Shown piece after piece: positions 6,395-20,100 of a stretch of 64,000 nt of DNA. Under the pieces are notes generated by a model. That model was not told the DNA's origin and made no database searches. It saw nothing but the letters and a program-made list of their open reading frames with translations. The position numbers were made by a program, and so were the translations under genes. Position 1 is the first letter of the stretch. Every line of letters starts with the position of its first letter. Source of the stretch: Hirudinaria manillensis (lineage: Eukaryota; Annelida; Clitellata; Hirudinida; Hirudinidae); the NCBI GenBank assembly GCA_034509925.1, contig CM067535.1:253001-317000 (forward strand). The letters are read 5' to 3'.

Positions 6395-9458
<3,064 letters not shown>

Positions 9459-10130
9459 ATATTTTAAAGTTTCATTAAAAAGTGATTTGGACTGGATTGA
9501 GTTTTTACTTCTCTTTGGTTCAAATTTTGTTCTGACACTTAATCATTGATTTTACTGGACTATCAAATGACGTTTTTAACATTTAATCACTTTGCGAGTT
9601 TTGCGTCTGTTCTGAGTACGAGCTGATGCCATAGAGAAGTTATGCTGGGCATTGCATAGCAATCCACAATTTTCCGGGTGCATCGGGCGGAGTCGTCTGC
9701 CAGTGATGAATTTTGCGGCAGTGTGGGCCGGTCGTTGGTTTTCTATCGTTGTTGGGTCAGGGGCCGCGGTCGGCGCACAGGAATTCTGTCTCGTCGGTTG
9801 GTGATGTGGCTCCGGGTGGTGGGGCATCGCATTGGTGCATAGGTTAAGAGATTACTCTCGCGGAGTTTGACCGAATAAAGGTTTGGTACTTCAAAGTTCG
9901 AGCTGCTGGGTCTGTTACGGTTGGTTCTTCATGTGGCTCGTCACTAATGACTGCCTAACCGTCCACAAAAACATAAATTTTCCATCTAATATTGTTTAAA
10001 GTACAAAAATTGATTTTATTTAATTACTGTTTTTAAAATGAACTTTTTGATGTCGATTTAGGTGTTTCAAATATCTAGCAATAAACTTTTTGTTGTTTAT
10101 AGAGCGATAAAACAGAACCGAGATCCAAAA
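9459..10130. other. Intergenic between PLK1 and FTSJ1, with a GC-richer patch
   Basis: The stretch 9640-9850 is clearly richer in G and C than its surroundings. It carries an 83-codon minus-strand frame (9576-9827) rich in His, Pro and Thr. I recognise no domain. The sequence just before 10131 should hold the FTSJ1 promoter. Confidence 0.5.
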
Positions 10131-11903
10131 ATGGGCAGATCGTCAAAAGACAAGAGAGATATTTATTATAGACTAGCTAAAGAGGAAGGATGGAGAGCAA
10201 GAAGTGCATTTAAACTTATTCAAATTGATGAAGAATTTGCTTTGTTTTCAGGTTAGGCTGTATTATCTTTGTTTTGAATGGACACATGTTGTCTCAATTG
10301 GAATACTTTATAGTTTATGATTTGAATAATAAATTTTGAATAGTCTCGATTCACCATAAGTCACTATTTTTGAAGGCGTTAACAAGGTAGTCGATTTATG
10401 CGCTGCTCCTGGAAGTTGGAGCCAAGTATTATCAAGAAAATTGAGGTTATAACCCATTCTTATTATTGTTTAGAAACTAAGGGTTTTTTTATTAATACTT
10501 AAACTTTTTTGCTTCACTCGTGTTGTTCAGGGTCACAGATGGAGATGACGACAGAGTTAAAATAGTTGCAGTTGATTTGCAAGCTATGGCTCCCATTCCT
10601 GGAGTGATTCAGTTGCAGGGTGACATAACTCAAGTTAGTACTAAGCTAACAAATTTGAATGTAATTCAGAAAAATTGTCTCATCAGAATTTTACTCTGTC
10701 TATTTGACTGATTGATTTCTTGTTTGGAAACTCTATTTCATTAAAAGTTTTGACAAATATTTGGTCATTCTTTTATGATTTATTTTGACTTTTAGCAACA
10801 TATAGATACATCATTAATTCTTTTAAAAAGCAATCCACGGCAAAAAAAATCATTGATCTCTTTGAGGGAGAAAAGGCTGACATGGTTGTTTGTGATGGAG
10901 CTCCAGATGGTTTGGATAAAATTTACAAATTATTACAGGCTCTCTAGGTTCAATGACAATTTTAATTATGTAATTTTTAGTGACTGGCCTCCATGATATC
11001 GACGAATACATCCAAGCACAGCTTCTTCTAGCAGTAATGTGTTTATTTTCTTATTTACATTATTTATTCAAGAAACTCTCATGTTTACTTTATGTTTAGG
11101 CTCTCAATATCACCACCCATCTTTTAAAAAATGGAGGAAAATTTGTGGCCAAGGTTAATGAAATCTTATAAACATTTTCATCAAAGACTAAATAGATTTT
11201 CATGTTATTAGATATTTCGTGGCAAGGATGTCACTGTGTTGTACAATCAGCTAAAAATTTTCTTTGGAAAAGTTTCTGTTGCCAAACCAAAAAGCAGTAG
11301 AAATTCAAGCATAGGTAATTATAAAAAGAAATTATTTTAATTGAATTGTTTCTATTATGTGTTGATCCTTACAGAGGCATTTGTGGTTTGTGAAGATTTT
11401 GATCTACCTAAAGATTATTCTCCTGTCATGTTCTACCCTCTTCTCAATGATGTTTTGAGTGAGTTTATAGATTTCACTTCCATAAAAGTCTGTTAAAAGT
11501 ACATTTAGCTGGTATTTGTTGTATAAGTAAAATGATTGTGTCTTTAAACTTAATTAATTGTTTATTGTAGAATCAGATTTTGAAAATCTTACTGGCTCAA
11601 ACAGATTCATTGTTCCTTTCATGACATGTGGAGACCTCTCTGCCTATGACTCAGACATGACTTATCCTTTGAAAGTAGACTTACATTAGAATGCATTTCT
11701 CATATTGAATTTTCAGTAAATAGCCACCTGTTAAGTAAATAGCCAAGTAAGTTATTATGCATGACATGTATTTAAATATTTTCTAGACTGGATCAAAAGA
11801 CGATTCTTATAAGCCAAGAGGACCTACTCAACTTCCCATAAAACCACCTTATGAGGAAGCTTGTCAATTAAGAAAGACTGATCTCCTCACCAAAACTGAC
11901 TAA
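10131..11903 (+). CDS. FTSJ1: FTSJ1/TRM7-type tRNA 2'-O-ribose methyltransferase
   Basis: Ten exons (10131-10251, 10376-10445, 10531-10633, 10831-10909, 10981-11033, 11100-11153, 11212-11314, 11375-11458, 11571-11674, 11787-11903) encode 295 aa. The Rossmann-type SAM domain is complete: the [10 protein letters not shown] start, RARSAFKL with the first catalytic Lys, [11 protein letters not shown] (SAM-binding loop), [24 protein letters not shown] with the catalytic Asp, FVAKIFRG with the second catalytic Lys, and IEAF with the Glu. This is the K-D-K-E tetrad of RrmJ/FtsJ enzymes. The closest family is cytosolic FTSJ1, which methylates positions 32 and 34 of the tRNA anticodon loop, rather than nucleolar FTSJ3 or mitochondrial MRM2. 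The eukaryotic C-terminal extension ([17 protein letters not shown]) is present. A polyadenylation-like AATAAA lies near 11940. Confidence 0.96.
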
Positions 11904-12964
11904 GGCAATAAAACAAATTTAAAAATAGTAGATATTAATAAATAAAGGAGTTGTCTTGAATTACATTTGGACACAATGCTCTTTTTTTGAAGCCACATCA
12001 AAATGATTGACATCTATAAGATCTATTTCTGTGCTCTTGATCAGAATCTGCCATATAATATTTTACCATTGAGAACATCACATGTTGCCACAAAGTAGCA
12101 TAGTGAATTGCTTTGATATCCTCCATGATTGGAAAACAGGACTTATGAGGTCCTTGAACTCAGCGCCTAATTTCTACTCATGGGTCCAGTATCCATATTA
12201 GCCAAAGACAGGGGGGCCAGTTCATGCAAATTTCAAATTAGTGATTTGTTTTCCACCAGAATCGCTGCATGGCATCTGCTCCTTTTCTTTTGTGTGTCAG
12301 AAAAGGTAATTTTTTGCTAGGTTTGCCTAATTAAGATATTTATTTGCAGGAAGGCTGCTTTTGCATATTTATTGTTCAGTTCAACTCTCTCAATGGTAAT
12401 GTCAGAAGTTTAGTCTTAAATGGGGCATTTACATTAAACTGAATTTTCTTTGCTGCATTCCTCCTAGTTAATTTCAACAGGCTTGAGTAAATTGTAAAAT
12501 ATTTTAATAAAAATGTATAATTGTAGATCTTATTCTGTGGAAACTGTTCTTAAACTTATTTCTTAGCTCACCTTTGAACTTTTTGTAAAGCCATCAAGGT
12601 TTTTGACAAATATTTATTATTTAAAATAAATGACCACATGACAATTCAACAAATATATAAATCAGATCTTTAAAAGATATGCACATTGTTTTGTAATGGG
12701 ATTAAAATAGTCACGCATGAAATCTTGTGCAACAAAGTTAACTTGGTATTAAGTTAAAGTTTGCTATTGCTTTTATATTAAAATTGTAAATGCCATAAAC
12801 CTAAAGGCTAAGATGTCATTCATAATGAAGCAAACTTGAAATGAGTATAATGCATGTTCCACGGCATCAGTAAAACATATGCAAAAGGATCAACGATGAA
12901 GCATATTTTTTGCAAAAAAGTTTCTAGGAGAAAAAGATGCCACCGTCACCGTAATGTTACCACC
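11904..12964. other. Intergenic between FTSJ1 and the TIR-STING-caspase gene (convergent 3' ends)
   Basis: AT-rich, with no coding exon recognised on either strand. Both flanking genes end here, so it should hold their 3' untranslated regions and polyadenylation signals. Confidence 0.5.
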
Positions 12965-15900
12965 TCAGAGATACAAAGACTTGTTAAGTGAAGTGACATA
13001 AAATGGTTTCTGGGACCTCTGACAATCTTGTCTTCCAAACTTCTGAAGTTTTATGTCTGTCAAATCATTTGTCTTATCCAAACAACATTTTAATTCTAAG
13101 TTGGGTTGAAGGCATTCATGCAAAGCCTGGAGATATAAGCTTCCAACAGATGCATGTCTGTAGGAGGGTGCGTCATCCAGGCATGAATAAGAGATAAAAA
13201 AATCAGGACATTTTGGCACGAGGCTAGCCTTTTCCATGATTTTGCCATTACCTGATTTATCTTGTTGTTTTGAAACATCTGTAAGGATAATTTAGTAAAC
13301 AAGAAGTATGTTTGACATTTTAATGGATAAAATGAGCATCTTACTTAAACAGCTTTGAACAAAAAACAACTTTGGCTTTCCTTCAAGGCCTGGACAGTTT
13401 TTACTGTAGAAATACTCTATGATGCTATGAATGCTCATGGATGAGTCGATGGTGAAAATGTTACCACCACATCCATGACTAGAAATGCAACATGCAACAC
13501 ATCCATATCTTTCCCAGTCAACTTTCTTTAAATTTTCTAACTCAGTTTTAAATACTTTTGTTGGAAGATCAAGGAATGATGTGACCTCAAATTTGAGACT
13601 TTTGAAAGTTTTTTTAATATAATCTTCAAGAAATCGGATAAACAATTTGTAAAGTGAAAGTAAATGAAGAATATTTCTATTATTATTCTGAAGAACATAA
13701 ACAATGATCATTGAACATTCTGCTGACAATAAAATTTCATTAGAAACTCCATTACGTAAACTACCTACCTACATAAATCACCATTTCCTTATTGAAACAA
13801 ACTCACTTTAATTTGATGCATTAAATTTTACATAAAAAGTCTTTTGGTTATTTGGTGCATTCACTCATTTAATGCAGCATTTGTATAACATATTTATTTG
13901 TTTCCAGAATAACATATGGGACAAGAACAAGTAGATTCAGTACTAAATAGAAACGGATTGTTAAGTTTCCAGATATCAGACCCAAAAGAATTCATTCATA
14001 TAGGCTGTTTATCTGCAACAATATGCTTTATGGAGACAAAAATTTGAGAGACAAACCTGCCTTAGCAAAGTTTATTTCATGGAATTGAGGCTGTAGGCTT
14101 TTTATAAAGAACAATTACAATGATTTACCATGGTAGAATAGATTTATAAATCAAAAGCAAAAGTAAGGAATTTCACAGTGATTCAGGTTTGGATACCATA
14201 CTATTGTGAAATAATTACATAAATAGAAAACTTGAAAGTAACCATTGATCAAATAATTTTAAAATTTTCTCATCTTTTCTACTTATTACATAATTTTTTC
14301 TGTATAGAGTTTTAAAAATGTAAATAATTTACAAAATGAAATACAGAAATAGAATAATATCAGGGCAACTCAAAACATTAGACCAAACAAACCAATATCT
14401 TTATCATATCCATTTCTTGGTTCAGGATCAGATATTGTATTAGAATAAACAAATGATAAGCATAGTCCTTTGACTTGAAATGATCTTAGTGGATAAATAT
14501 CCTTCTTGTCATCATAAATAGCTACAACAGTAAGTTATCCAACAACATTACATTACAAAGTAAATTATTTAACAAGGTCAATAACACTCTAAAAGTTATT
14601 CATTTCTATGCACAACTTTCTATTAACTTAACATGAAATCAAATTCAAGGAAAGAGTCTCAGTCTTCAGATATGATGGCTTTTTGGTTGCTGACTTAAAA
14701 TAGATACACAACAAAAATACCTTTAGGATTTTCAGCAACGACATCTTTTATATCAAAATATCCTTCAACTTTGGTAACTTTTTGACTTGATACTATGGTC
14801 TCTTCAATGAAAGAAATACTAAATTAAAATTTAAATTAGAAAATCTTAAGGAAAATCCACAGAACAACCTCTATTACTAATTTCTTCATATATAACCTTA
14901 AGAAGAAAATCTTGAAGACCATCAATTTCAGGATCTAAAATTAGTTGATCATTTTGTTATGAAGATGATATAAACTGTGAGGCTATAATAATAATCACTT
15001 ATATTCCTCCAAAATAATAGTCTTGCACAGTCTTTTGTTTCTGGGTGTTCATTCAAAAGGGTCTGAAGGGTTAAAAAAAAAGCATTCCTTCCCTGGTAGA
15101 GCTCTTCTAAAGTGAGACCATATTTTCCATAGATATATGTTTCATACATAGTGAGAGTTGGAGTAGTAAACTCTCCAACAAAATAAAATGTTTCTCCCTT
15201 CAATAGAGACAAAAGTGATCTAGTCTAATCATGCAACAGGCATCTTTTCATTTATTCACTCATCATTCTCTATTCTCTGGAAATTTGTTTATAATGTTAA
15301 AACATGCTTATAAGGAATCACCTTCTCATTAACAACTTTGTGGACAGAACTTTTGTAATCTCTTAATCTAACTCCTGCTCTATCAGCTGCAGTCACAACA
15401 TACATATCTGTTTCTCCATCAAATCGTATCTGGCCTTTACAGTCTTCTGGAACAATAATAAGATATCTTGGGGCAGCATTTTTAACACGATCATCATTGT
15501 TAAGAGCATTTTCATAGAACTTAGTCCTCATATCTGAAATATAAAATTTATTATATGTTTTCTGAAATATAAAATTTTATAAAATTGTAATATTAAAACT
15601 ATCTGATCATCCAATTGAATTCAAATGCACTTCATATACTTGGAAGGATAATCCTCAGATAACCATAAAAATATCCAAAAGCAGACTCAGGTCCCATGTT
15701 GTCCTTTGGAATCTTGTATAGGTCTAGGTTCTTTTCTGTCAAAAGTGATTATGTTAAATGTTATTTATATAGAATTTAAAAGGATGATTTAATGTAAAAA
15801 CCAACTCCTTTCAAATAATTCTGTGCATTCTCCAACAATAACATTAAGGTTATGATCATGGCTATTATTACTTGACATCTTTATTTCTTTAAAGTTTTCC

Positions 15901-16223
15901 TCAGAAGTATTAGTGGTGAAATTAAATATCAGCACGGCCTCATCAGTAAATCTATTTTTTTTATCGATTAGACATGTCAATTCTTCTACATCGGTGGCAT
16001 CTTTACCAAAATCATTTGTGAGCAAGAGAATGCACCGAAAGCTTTCGCCGATACCATATTTCACACTAGGAATCACTTCTGTCTCGAGACACAAAAGATC
16101 ATACTTTACATACACTTTAAACCCTTTTTCGTTAAGATTCGCAGCACATTTTTTCATGAACCAAGAAATACCGAATGCTCCACCTATATACAAATGATAC
16201 CCAAACGGATCAACAAGATCCAT
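12965..16223 (-). CDS. TIR-STING-caspase fusion protein (putative cyclic-dinucleotide sensor/effector)
   Basis: Nine minus-strand exons fit in phase: 16223-15806, 15735-15640, 15533-15322, 15197-14999, 14934-14869, 14801-14721, 14521-14393, 13623-13345, 13278-12965; about 597 aa. The start ATG follows an in-frame TGA. Residues 1-139 look like a TIR domain (YHLYIGGA strand, then LNEKGFKVYVKYDLL and RCILLLTNDF). Residues about 150-330 are a STING ligand domain: GYFYGYLRIILP, RYLIIVPEDC, DRAG loop with R223 (human R238), E251 and T254 in E-F-T-T-P (human E260/T263), and Y165 (human Y167). Residues about 365-597 are a caspase: VKGLCLSF, RNGYDKD, SSHG with H450, GKPKLFFVQSC with C492, then p10 FFISYS...SYRHASVGSLYLQ. 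There is no membrane segment. After C492 the sequence is L-N, not R-G. The exon 5/6 junction is the least certain. Confidence 0.85.
13624..14392 (-). other. Long intron 7 of the TIR-STING-caspase gene
   Basis: At about 770 bp this is the longest intron in the gene; the others are about 65-270 bp. It interrupts the caspase p20 after R-N-G-Y-D-K-D-I and resumes at D-Y-I-K-K-T-F, an exact phase and alignment match to other caspases. No exon or promoter was recognised inside it. Confidence 0.7.
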
Positions 16224-17112
16224 AGTTCCAATTCGATAAAGCACGCAAGTTGCGAATACGCATCAAAACCACATCGAAACCAATTACCAGGTACAATGCA
16301 GGGAAATTTTTGCAACAAACTAATTGTGCCAGCAGCAAAGCCAAGAATTTAAAATTTACGTACGAGGTAGGGGAAATTTTTTTTTAGATATTGATGATGA
16401 TTGATGACTTTTTTTGCTTCTCATACCAAAATTTAGTCTCTCAAGGCCGGACAAAGTTCCACATGAAAGGTTAGGATAGCTTCAAAGTATGGAAAGGTAT
16501 TGAAATAAATAATGAGGTTAGAAGTGTCAAAAGATGGGGATTTTTGAAAAAGCCCCAGTTGGATCAAGATCGACGCTGACTCAAGTCTCGGAACGCGAGA
16601 ATGATTCGCCTGCTTTGATACGTGGAATGTCTTAAGACATTTAAACATATAACTATTAATAACTTTATTAACGATATACGCTACTCTGATCGTTGAAGAT
16701 ACTAGATTTAAATACTTAAAGTTGAGTTTAAACATGATGTGACCTAAACCTAATTAAAAACGTGATCGAAGCATGTGCTCAATATTGTTAGGAGCTGATT
16801 GAGGTGTGTTGTAAGAACGAAGATTTTAAAAAGCTTTTTTACTTAATTATGCTAGTAAATGTAACACTATCAATATAAGCCGTTGCTTAGCATGGAGAGT
16901 AAACGTGTTCACGTTCAAAAACCTTACTTTCTGAATTTTTACTGCGGGTGAATTATAATAGAATTTTGATGGAAGTACGAATATTTATTTAAATAATCTT
17001 AAATCGATTCACATTAATTTGAGGCAGTGTATAATTGTTAATTAATCATTTGGATAAACATATCGATTTCTTTATTAAATGATCGAAATGGTAGTTTAAA
17101 TTGAATCGGCAG
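16224..17112. other. Divergent intergenic region / unresolved 5' end of the ciliary gene
   Basis: Lies between the start of the TIR-STING-caspase gene and the first clear exon of the plus-strand ciliary gene, so it may act as a shared promoter. A plus-strand ATG at 16892 opens a 19-codon stretch (M-E-S-K-R-V-H-V-Q-K-P-Y-F-L-N-F) followed by a GT donor. It could be an upstream exon of the ciliary gene, but its phase does not join directly to 17113. The minus-strand frame 16433-16735 looks spurious. Confidence 0.4.
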
Positions 17113-20100
17113 ATTTCGGTAAATGAGCAGACAGTTGACTTTGGAAAAGAACTCTTAGGGAATACCGTGCTGAGAAGTGTAAATGTTTGTAATGTCAGTA
17201 ATGTTGCTGGGCCTTATGTGGTCGACAGAATTTCGATTAGCGCAAGTATGATCAGTTGAGAATTGCCAAATTAAAAGTCTTTACTTAATGTTATCTATTA
17301 AATGCATTAACTATATATAACAGAGTTATTTAAAATTATCATAGCTTCGAAAGAAGAAAATGGGAATGTGGACACCAGAAGCGGTTTCTAAATTTAATCA
17401 ATATCACGAACTGATTAAATTATGAAGGATGCTAGCTGGTGTATAAGATAGTTATCTAGTTTTCATTAATTTTTTGTTTTGTTATTGACAATTCATTTAA
17501 TTACATCAATCCTGTAATTTTTTTTTTCTTCCAGATTTTGAAGGATTCAGCATAGAAGGAGTAAGGCAACCATTTTATGAAAGAGCTTTAAATTAATAAT
17601 TATTTTATTAAAAGAAACGCCTAGGATATTTGAAATCAGGCTGCATTGAATCGATATGCTTCAAGTGGGAGCCTCAGTCTGTTGGACTTGCAAAATCTGA
17701 GTTTGTTGTTTCTTGTCCAGGATGTGATGATGTCAGCTTATATATTTCTTTTTTGTTCTAAGCTGGTGCTCATGTTTCCTATGCTATTTCAATTTAGATT
17801 AAAATTGCATGCAAAGCTGAATGTATTGATGGATCCATTTCAATAAGTGCAGCCCTTATTGATTTTAAGATATGTCTTTTCAATAGTTCTTATGAAAAGT
17901 CTGTTACACTAACTAACAGGTAATAAATTTTAAAGTTTAATTTTTTATATTAAGTTTTGTCATAGTTAAAAAATCTTGATGTCGTAGGAATACCATTCCA
18001 AAAACTGTAAAATGCACAATACCTATAGAAATATTAGAGCATCTTGATATTGTTCCTGGAAACATACTCCTCCAGGCTAACTCATCTTACAGTCTTAAAA
18101 TCCAGTTCCAGCCCAAGTACATAGACCACTTACAACAAATTTTCTGCAATTTAAAGGGATTTTTTCCATTTGGACAGAAATACCTTGTCCTTAGATGCTC
18201 CAATGTATTTTGATAGTGAGACTAGCTCATTTGAATTTCTCATTTCTGTGCAAGCTGATGATGAAGTGAGCTAACTTCCTTAAACAATGAAGTCTGCAGC
18301 ATTTAGCTCGTTTGTTTCACTTTTATTATTTTTACAAAGCTGTACTACTTTGCTAGATTCTGAAGTAAAAATATAATCCATAAAAGATTCCTTTTCTTGT
18401 CACATTATTTATAATGAAGCTGTGACAAATCATTTGCTTTTGACATAATAATTTGATATATGTTCAACATTAATTTTATAATATGCTTATTATTATAGAT
18501 GTAATTATAATTTTCACAATCAGAATGAACTGAACATTGCTGCAATGGGAATAGTAACCACAGATGATGTGGAAATCTCCCCATCACAGATTGATTTTGG
18601 AGTTTGCACAATATATGAAAAAGTCCGAATGCCACTCTCTATCACCAATCTTTCACTCCTTCCACAAGAAGTTTCCTTTGCCAATGTGCCAGCAGTATGA
18701 TTTTTACAGTTACTTTGTGAATTACTGTCCCAACCATGATGTTAAATCTGTTTTGTTTAGTATAAATATTTCAGTTTAGTATTTTGAAATTGAAGCAATT
18801 GTGCAAATGTAAATAAGGTTTAAGAAAATGTTATTTTTAATGAGTATTTTTAAATTTTTCACCAGTATTTTGGTAATATACTATCACATAATGAATGGTC
18901 TCAATTTTTGAAGGAAATTTGCTTGCAAACCTCTTTACAATTTGGAAAATTATGTCCTTTGGAAACTGTAGTGGTTGATTTGATATTTGAATCAACAAGA
19001 GATTGCTTATATAACTTCAACTTTCAACTGATAAATGGAAGAAATAGGTAGCTGTATTTATCCTGATTGCATGATCATAGTTTTGATTATTTCATTTTCA
19101 TTACCATATTTGGTAATGTTTGAATGTTTGAGAAATTAAACTGAAAAAAATCCATGGAGTATTAGTTAAATATGATCTTGTTAATGTAGACACTTAGATG
19201 GCAACTAAAAGGTAATCTTAAACATCTTTAGAAATTACATGATTCTTAAACCTTTACTATATTTGTGAAGCTATATTTTCTGGGGAGACACTGATTGGAT
19301 TCAGGCAAAAGAATTATGACATTTCAATAGTCAGCAGTAATAATTGTTTTTGTAATTGTTTTAGAATATTTCCAATAAAATGCATAGGCATGGGAAAAGT
19401 ACCCTCCTTAAAAATATCCCATCAGTTGCTCTTCTTCAAGGCAACAGCTCCAGGGGATGAATCACAACTCATTATACATGTTTCCAATGAATCCTGTATG
19501 TTATTAAAAGTTAACAGTTGCAATAATACTTTTCTCCCAAGTCAAGTATTCTCCCTATAGGGCAGTATTGCATATTTGAGTTTGGGTCAAGTGAAGAAGT
19601 ACCTATTTATTTCACTCCAAAGATTAACAGGTTATCACCCAAACAGGTAATTACAATAAGAGAATGCATGTTATCAAAAATCACTAATTCAAGATTACCT
19701 ATAACTACCTTCCAGCAATCTTTGGTAAAAATTTCTTATAAACCAACCATAAAAGTGAAGGACATCGAGGTAGAGGCATCCAGACTTCGTCATCAGTCCA
19801 ATGATGAAAACCTTGAGGTGGATTGAAAGTTAATGTCTGACACTCTATTATAATTAATTGTTGTTAATTAAACTTTTTGGAAGAAACCAGTAGAATCAGA
19901 GAAAGGAGGGAGCAGTGATAATTCTTCTCCAGATCATTTATTTAGGTAGCTCACCTGAAAGTTTACATTGTCTTTGACTTGGTCGTCTGATGCTGTTGGC
20001 AAAATATACTAAAATATGATAATTGATTTATTTGACAATTGATTTGTTAATATGTCCTTTTTAAATAAGTCATATTTTTAGTTCCAAGGAGTTAATAATA

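What the first reader, a model, noticed from the sequence alone, without database searches (positions are those of the whole stretch)
12965..16223. A single gene encodes a TIR-STING-caspase fusion
Nine minus-strand exons join without a phase break and give, in order, a TIR domain, a STING cyclic-dinucleotide-binding domain and a full caspase (p20 and p10). STING usually signals through membrane helices and a TBK1/IRF3 tail; here the sensor would be soluble and tied at one end to a candidate NAD hydrolase and at the other to a cysteine protease. TIR-STING fusions are established in bacterial CBASS and in some molluscs; I know of no described STING-caspase or TIR-STING-caspase protein, so the three-part architecture may be new. 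The exon structure and domain motifs are seen; the joint function is inference.
Basis: partly seen in the sequence, partly recalled or inferred. Interest (0 to 1): 0.97.

Follow-up and report, generated by a model that had tools for sequence, protein, structure and literature searches.

The report
Leech immune sensor fused to caspase
A leech gene appears to join a STING-type immune messenger sensor directly to a caspase (a protease best known from cell death), with a TIR-like domain in front, so that a step that other animals split between separate proteins would sit in one molecule; the gene is predicted from DNA and no transcript has been checked here.

Summary
The nine-exon model holds. The exons (16223 to 12965, minus strand) join in phase into one 594-residue open frame. 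Pfam calls a STING ligand-binding domain (E 1.4e-23) and a caspase (E 1.1e-30) above cut-off; the N-terminal TIR is the best Pfam hit of exon 1 (E 0.0016) but lies under the cut-off. The closest solved relative of the STING part is the oyster TIR-STING fusion (E 9.5e-21). Eight checked STING positions, the caspase Cys/His pair and the Asp-pocket arginines are conserved. No methionine lies between residues 259 and 460, so the caspase has no start codon of its own; intron 6 is 199 bp. It is the only STING found in this genome. The assembly matches the leech Hirudinaria manillensis, which also encodes a cGAS-like candidate. Best reading: a soluble, cyclic-dinucleotide-gated caspase, short-circuiting the STING-FADD-caspase route of Drosophila. 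The TIR is more likely an adaptor or assembly domain than an NADase. Nine paper searches on the point listed no STING-caspase fusion. No transcript could be checked.

The parts
15806..16223 (-). exon 1: start codon (first ATG of its open stretch; context AACTATGG) and TIR-like domain, residues 1-139
   Evidence: PF01582 18.7 bits, E 0.0016, below cut-off
15640..15735 (-). exon 2: start of the STING ligand-binding domain (GYFYGYLRIILP)
15322..15533 (-). exon 3: STING core with the DRAG..R.Y ligand loop (R223, R229, Y231)
14999..15197 (-). exon 4: STING core with EFTTPTLT (E251, T254, P255, T258); the Pfam-bounded STING domain ends here (residue 308)
   Evidence: the one STING_LBD match of the genome search lies here
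14878..14934 (-). exon 5: residues 309-327, still aligned to the C-terminal part of the STING domain in PDB matches
14721..14801 (-). exon 6: linker between STING and caspase, residues 328-354
14522..14720 (-). intron 6 (199 bp), the STING-caspase join; phase 1; no AATAAA or ATTAAA on this strand
14393..14521 (-). exon 7: start of the caspase domain (RNGYDKDI, S1 arginine R390); no in-frame ATG
13345..13623 (-). exon 8: caspase p20 with H447 and C489 (SSHG, VQSC)
12965..13278 (-). exon 9: caspase p10 with S1 arginine R531 (SYRHASVGS) and stop codon

Best explanation
The gene makes one soluble protein, TIR-STING-caspase. Shown: one open nine-exon frame, strong STING and caspase domains with conserved ligand and catalytic residues, a sub-threshold TIR, no likely membrane helix, a candidate cGAS-like enzyme in the same genome. 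Inferred: a cGAS-like enzyme senses infection and makes a cyclic dinucleotide; the STING dimer binds it, closes and oligomerises; the C-terminal caspase domains are thereby brought together and activated by induced proximity, as initiator caspases are through CARD or DED prodomains; the activated protease then cuts its own linkers (aspartates lie at 344, 347, 358, 359, 362 before the caspase and at 497 between its two parts) and downstream substrates. The TIR most likely helps assembly or recruits TIR adaptors; NAD cleavage is possible but unproven.
For: One 594-residue frame over nine exons, eight GT-AG introns. STING_LBD E 1.4e-23, Peptidase_C14 E 1.1e-30. STING best matches the oyster TIR-STING (6wt6, E 9.5e-21) at nearly the same distance from the N-terminus (alignment from query 148, chain 170). 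Equivalents of human STING Y167, R232, R238, Y240, E260, T263, P264, T267 and caspase-3 R64, H121, Q161, C163, R207 are present (positions chosen and numbered from memory). Methionines only at 1, 23, 116, 153, 173, 215, 259, 460, 505, so no caspase-only start before the catalytic His447. Only STING found in the genome. Candidate cGLR with GS...EFD and VDIV motifs at C6 near 11.0 Mb. Precedent: activated STING oligomers recruit FADD and the caspase DREDD in Drosophila (PMC13144350, abstract and passages); bacterial TIR-STING is activated by filament assembly (PMC9402430, passages). Asp positions.
Against: No transcript. TIR below the Pfam cut-off and a weak exon 1 donor. The usual caspase pentapeptide QACRG (recalled) reads QSCLN (model), so activity may be reduced. 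No second genome with the same order could be examined. The genome also has IRF, DED, CARD and Toll-type TIR matches, so other routes are open to it. AATAAA or ATTAAA hexamers occur in introns 1, 2, 3, 7 and 8, so shorter transcripts are not excluded.
Confidence: 0.62

Rival explanations
1. The fusion is real, but the caspase domain is a weak or dead pseudo-protease that acts as a scaffold (in the manner of cFLIP), for example to hold other caspases on STING oligomers.
For: The residues around the catalytic cysteine are changed (QSCLN, model); the alanine, arginine and glycine of the recalled consensus QACRG are lost.
Against: Cys, His, Gln and both S1 arginines are kept, and the Pfam match runs through the p10 part to residue 593; cFLIP, as recalled, lacks catalytic residues.
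Confidence: 0.18
2. Two products rather than one: a TIR-STING transcript that ends in or after intron 6 and a caspase transcript from another start, or alternative splice forms of one gene.
For: Reading on past exon 6 meets a stop after 8 codons. AATAAA occurs in intron 7 (14076, 13898). TIR-STING without mention of a caspase is the described form in oyster.
Against: No in-frame ATG from residue 260 to 459; intron 6 is 199 bp with no AATAAA or ATTAAA on this strand; phase and splice sites join the domains exactly.
Confidence: 0.12
3. Exon 1 (TIR-like) is a separate small gene and the protein is a STING-caspase that starts at Met153 in exon 2.
For: Exon 1 read through ends at a stop codon at 15791-15789; its donor is weak; ATTAAA lies at 15793; exon 2 has an in-frame ATG at 15697.
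Against: About 90 bp separate that stop from the exon 2 ATG; the deposited metazoan TIR-STING has the same order and similar spacing; both candidate donors are in phase with exon 2.
Confidence: 0.12
4. The TIR is an active NADase and the protein is a double effector that both depletes NAD and activates proteolysis.
For: A glutamate at the usual place aligns (E81, invariant in alignment A1); bacterial TIR-STING is an NADase.
Against: The TIR is highly divergent (13-15% identity to 5 TIRs of the same genome) and the oyster TIR groups with animal TIRs such as TICAM1 and 2.
Confidence: 0.2

Closest known systems
Metazoan TIR-STING (PDB 6wt6/6wt7; oyster Crassostrea gigas)
   Same: TIR before STING, similar spacing, best sequence match of the STING part
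   Different: Deposited chain is 415 residues with the match to STING at 170-354, too short for a caspase behind it; the role of its TIR is described as unclear (PMC10732462, passage)
Drosophila STING-FADD-DREDD pathway
   Same: STING oligomers lead to activation of a caspase (PMC13144350, abstract and passages)
   Different: Separate proteins linked by death-fold contacts; here sensor and caspase would be covalent and no DED is found in the model
Bacterial CBASS TIR-STING
   Same: TIR-STING order; ligand-driven filament activates the effector (PMC9402430, passages)
   Different: The Prok_STING family was not matched; no caspase
Other STING fusions: bacterial STING with trypsin-type peptidase and other enzymes; fungal PNP-STING
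   Same: STING wired directly to an enzyme, in one case a protease (PMC10732462; PMC12424679; passages)
   Different: Other enzymes, not animal caspases
Initiator caspases (CARD/DED-caspase)
   Same: Caspase domain behind an oligomerising N-terminal part
   Different: The N-terminal part is a small-molecule receptor here; the genome has a separate caspase with DED matches upstream at C1:6714422-6716665

Membership tests
Animal STING | STING ligand-binding domain over the Pfam cut-off | tested here: met
   83.6 bits against 27, residues 154-308
Animal STING | Cyclic-dinucleotide contact and pocket residues | tested here: met
   8 of 8 checked positions kept; positions and human numbering recalled
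Animal STING | Four N-terminal transmembrane helices | tested here: not met
   Highest 19-residue hydropathy 1.14; TIR-like domain instead
Animal STING | C-terminal TBK1/IRF3 tail (LxIS core of the recalled pLxIS motif) | tested here: not met
   No L.IS in the 594 residues; a linker and the caspase follow the domain
Metazoan TIR-STING | N-terminal TIR domain | tested here: inconclusive
   E 0.0016, best hit of exon 1 but under the cut-off; 4 of 5000 shuffles higher against own-genome TIRs
Metazoan TIR-STING | TIR-STING order and spacing; STING part of animal type | tested here: met
   Best PDB match 6wt6, query 148-327 to chain 170-354
Caspase (Peptidase C14A) | p20 and p10 with His/Cys dyad and S1 arginines | tested here: met
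   H447, C489, R390, Q487, R531
Caspase (Peptidase C14A) | QACxG around the catalytic Cys | tested here: not met
   QSCLN (model); consensus recalled
Initiator caspase | CARD or DED prodomain | tested here: not met
   The Pfam scan of the model lists neither at E up to 10
Bacterial CBASS STING | Prok_STING domain (PF20300) | tested here: not met
   Not listed at E up to 10
Any | Ligand binding, NADase or protease activity | not testable with these tools
   Needs protein

The most novel reading that the evidence does not exclude
A self-contained receptor-effector: a cyclic-dinucleotide second messenger switches on a caspase in the same polypeptide, with a TIR effector or adaptor at the other end, bypassing TBK1/IRF and FADD. 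It would be a natural fusion (Rosetta-stone) record that STING-to-caspase signalling is an old and direct output of STING in protostomes, and a eukaryotic counterpart of bacterial STING-protease effectors.
Probability: 0.5. Interest if true: 0.92.

Novelty: new variant of a known kind. Interest (0 to 1): 0.82.

Why it matters
It would give a soluble animal STING whose output is written in its own sequence. The 2026 Drosophila work leaves open whether recruiting FADD to STING oligomers is an ancestral route used by other invertebrates (PMC13144350, passage); a covalent STING-caspase in an annelid makes the STING-caspase link testable with one protein. It is also a ready-made ligand-gated protease of possible use as a tool.

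Tried and rejected
Contamination: rejected; the locus has eight GT-AG introns, lies at 265965-269223 of a contig that reaches at least 5.6 Mb, and has animal-type neighbours (neighbour names are my reading of the ORFs). Second STING gene: PF15009 gave 1 match, in this gene; the whole model gave 10 matches, 8 at this locus and 2 elsewhere to the caspase part. These searches go exon by exon and the PF15009 one saw a single exon of this gene, so a divergent second STING could be missed. Splice choice after exon 5: a donor with exon end 14897 breaks the frame. TIR by structure: the single-sequence model was poor and the fold search gave 35 matches at E up to 10 and none at 0.001; weak TIR-APAZ matches at E 5-10 are not evidence. 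NCBIfam and PADLOC gave 0 hits for exon 1. A further weak Pfam line in the full model, GHMP_kinases_C (E 0.18), I take as chance. Viral contigs: 10 pattern matches, 0 relatives. An attempt to list donors of introns in the TIR cluster on C11 returned acceptors only, so donor strength in this genome was not calibrated. A bacterial promoter scan across intron 6 (4 sites, 2.6 expected) says nothing for an animal. A caspase tree was not built.

Full report
What was checked. The window is G000:C10:253001-317000 of a 148.43 Mb genome in 23 contigs. Contig lengths seen here (C1 14,755,599; C6 11,463,318; C13 8,303,845; C23 15,581) match the published Hirudinaria manillensis assembly: 22 scaffolds, the 13 longest 14.76 to 8.30 Mb, N50 11.46 Mb, plus a mitochondrial genome of 15,581 bp (PMC10671345, passages). 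The published scaffold total, 148.59 Mb, is 0.16 Mb larger; I have no explanation. COX1 reads sensibly with ATA as Met and AGR as Ser (judged by eye), as expected for an annelid. I take the source to be the Asian buffalo leech.

Gene model. Splicing nine minus-strand exons (16223-15806, 15735-15640, 15533-15322, 15197-14999, 14934-14878, 14801-14721, 14521-14393, 13623-13345, 13278-12965) gives 1785 bases: 594 residues and a stop, with no internal stop. All eight introns are GT-AG, 64 to 769 bp; seven are phase 1 and the third is phase 0. The start codon is the first ATG of its open stretch. Two choices were tested: the exon 5 end at 14897 breaks the frame; the exon 1 end at 15872 keeps it, but would remove a stretch (LNVIV, residues 126-130) that I read as the last TIR strand.

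Domains. In the full model Pfam lists Peptidase_C14 (residues 386-593, E 1.1e-30), STING_LBD (154-308, E 1.4e-23) and, under their cut-offs, TIR (E 0.027), TIR_2 (E 0.17) and GHMP_kinases_C (E 0.18); exon 1 alone gives TIR E 0.0016 and TIR_2 E 0.016 and nothing else. The STING part finds the chain named metazoan TIR-STING fusion first (6wt6, E 9.5e-21) and then STING chains (77 distinct sequences at E up to 1, 60 shown). The caspase part finds caspase-3 and -7 chains (162 distinct sequences at E up to 0.001, 60 shown; the best is an ancestral effector caspase, E 1.1e-20, matched over the p20 part). The TIR is the weak point: against a profile of six TIR sequences from the same genome exon 1 scored 9.8 bits, with 4 of 5000 shuffles higher; PDB, NCBIfam and PADLOC gave no TIR; the fold job was inconclusive. 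I judge TIR about 90% likely, because both Pfam hits of exon 1 are TIR models, the order and spacing follow the deposited TIR-STING, and the conserved glutamate aligns.

Key residues. STING equivalents of human Y167, R232, R238, Y240, E260, T263, P264 and T267 are Y165, R223, R229, Y231, E251, T254, P255 and T258; caspase-3 R64, H121, Q161, C163 and R207 are R390, H447, Q487, C489 and R531 (positions and reference numbering recalled). The residues around the catalytic cysteine are QSCLN rather than the recalled QACRG. The highest 19-residue hydropathy is 1.14, so a membrane helix is unlikely. No L.IS motif is present.

One gene or two. Methionines lie at 1, 23, 116, 153, 173, 215, 259, 460 and 505. 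A separate caspase gene would have no start codon between residue 259 and its catalytic histidine at 447. Intron 6, which joins STING to caspase, is 199 bp and carries no AATAAA or ATTAAA on the coding strand. Such hexamers do occur in introns 1, 2, 3, 7 and 8, in exons 1, 8 and 9, and after the stop codon at 12618 and 12508, so they discriminate little in this AT-rich DNA. Reading on past exon 6 meets a stop after 8 codons, so an isoform without the caspase is possible. The TIR-STING join is less certain: exon 1 has a weak donor, its read-through stop lies about 90 bp before an in-frame ATG in exon 2 (15697), and an ATTAAA overlaps that stop region (15793).

Genome context. PF15009 has one match in the genome, in exon 4 of this gene. 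With the whole model as query 10 matches were listed: 8 in this gene and 2 to the caspase part elsewhere. PF00656 gave 25 exon-level matches, the best being this gene. Its nearest caspase relative among the loci fetched is at C1:6716130 (33% over 93 residues, E 8e-11), which has two DED matches upstream, one over and one under the cut-off (4 DED matches in all, 2 over). The genome also has IRF (12 exon-level matches), CARD (5), TIR (17) and Mab-21 family matches (5 for PF03281; 7 for PF20266). One of these, at C6 about 10,999,540-11,001,660, shows VGSAYEGVKVTDLEFDVMV and, in a later open stretch, FYSVDIVP, the motifs that I recall for active cGAS-like enzymes. So a ligand-making enzyme is a reasonable guess; which ligand it makes is unknown.

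Mechanism. Bacterial STING oligomerises on ligand binding into filaments that activate fused TIR domains (PMC9402430, passages). In Drosophila, activated STING oligomers recruit FADD and so the caspase DREDD (PMC13144350, abstract and passages). Caspases of the initiator type are activated by being brought together (recalled). A caspase fused to the STING C-terminus would be activated by the same event without FADD. This is inference, with good parts but no assay.

Literature. Ten searches of the held library (5.39 million open papers) were made; one search was on leech genomes. Listings were capped (for example 25 of 204, 25 of 65, 20 of 503 papers), and most listed papers were not opened. 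The direct search, for 'STING-caspase', 'caspase-STING', 'STING caspase fusion' and 'TIR-STING-caspase', found 1 paper, on psoriasis, seen in the listing only. PMC10732462 (passages) has no 'caspase' in its main text; it names STING fused to TIR, TM, deoxyribohydrolase, hydrolase and trypsin peptidase domains and calls eukaryotic TIR-STINGs rare. PMC12424679 (passages) reports fungal PNP-STING and has no 'caspase'. PMC9980059 (passages) has no 'caspase'. PMC8195603 (passages) mentions TRADD-N domains fused to STING. Passages of PMC8204762, PMC13142454, PMC6321704, PMC11249213 and PMC10855445 showed no such fusion. Two likely sources (PMC7685563, PMC7572726) are not held, so a prior mention cannot be excluded. 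No other animal genome could be searched.

Verdict. A real and unusual gene model; the STING-caspase fusion is well supported by sequence (I put it near 0.85), the TIR a little less, the function inferred. New variant of a known kind (STING receptor), with a new effector for an animal STING as far as these searches show.

Noticed in passing
L059 (G000:C6:10996000-11004000), minus strand, about 11001660-10999540: Candidate cGAS-like receptor with GS...EFD and VDIV motifs in two separate open stretches; a possible maker of the STING ligand.
   Followed up: partly
L039-L044 (G000:C11 7.95-8.18 Mb and 9.25 Mb): Cluster of TIR-encoding genes that seem to have an insertion between the first strand and the BB-loop region and an intron inside the TIR; 9 of the 17 TIR matches lie on C11.
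   Followed up: partly
G000:C1 14.088-14.100 Mb (L014, L015, L017, L018): Tandem cluster of Toll-like genes with near-identical TIR domains (three are 95-96% identical to the fourth).
   Followed up: no
G000:C9:3026446-3027786 (L010): COX1 match with the same score as the mitochondrial contig C23; a recent nuclear copy or an assembly artefact.
   Followed up: no
G000:C1:6714422-6716665: Separate caspase with DED matches upstream, caspase-8-like by layout, the nearest caspase relative among the loci fetched.
   Followed up: partly
window 7152-7511, 10062-11500 and 17000-19600, plus strand: Neighbours look like a Polo-type kinase, an FtsJ-type RNA methyltransferase and a protein with ASH-like repeats (by eye, no family search).
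   Followed up: no
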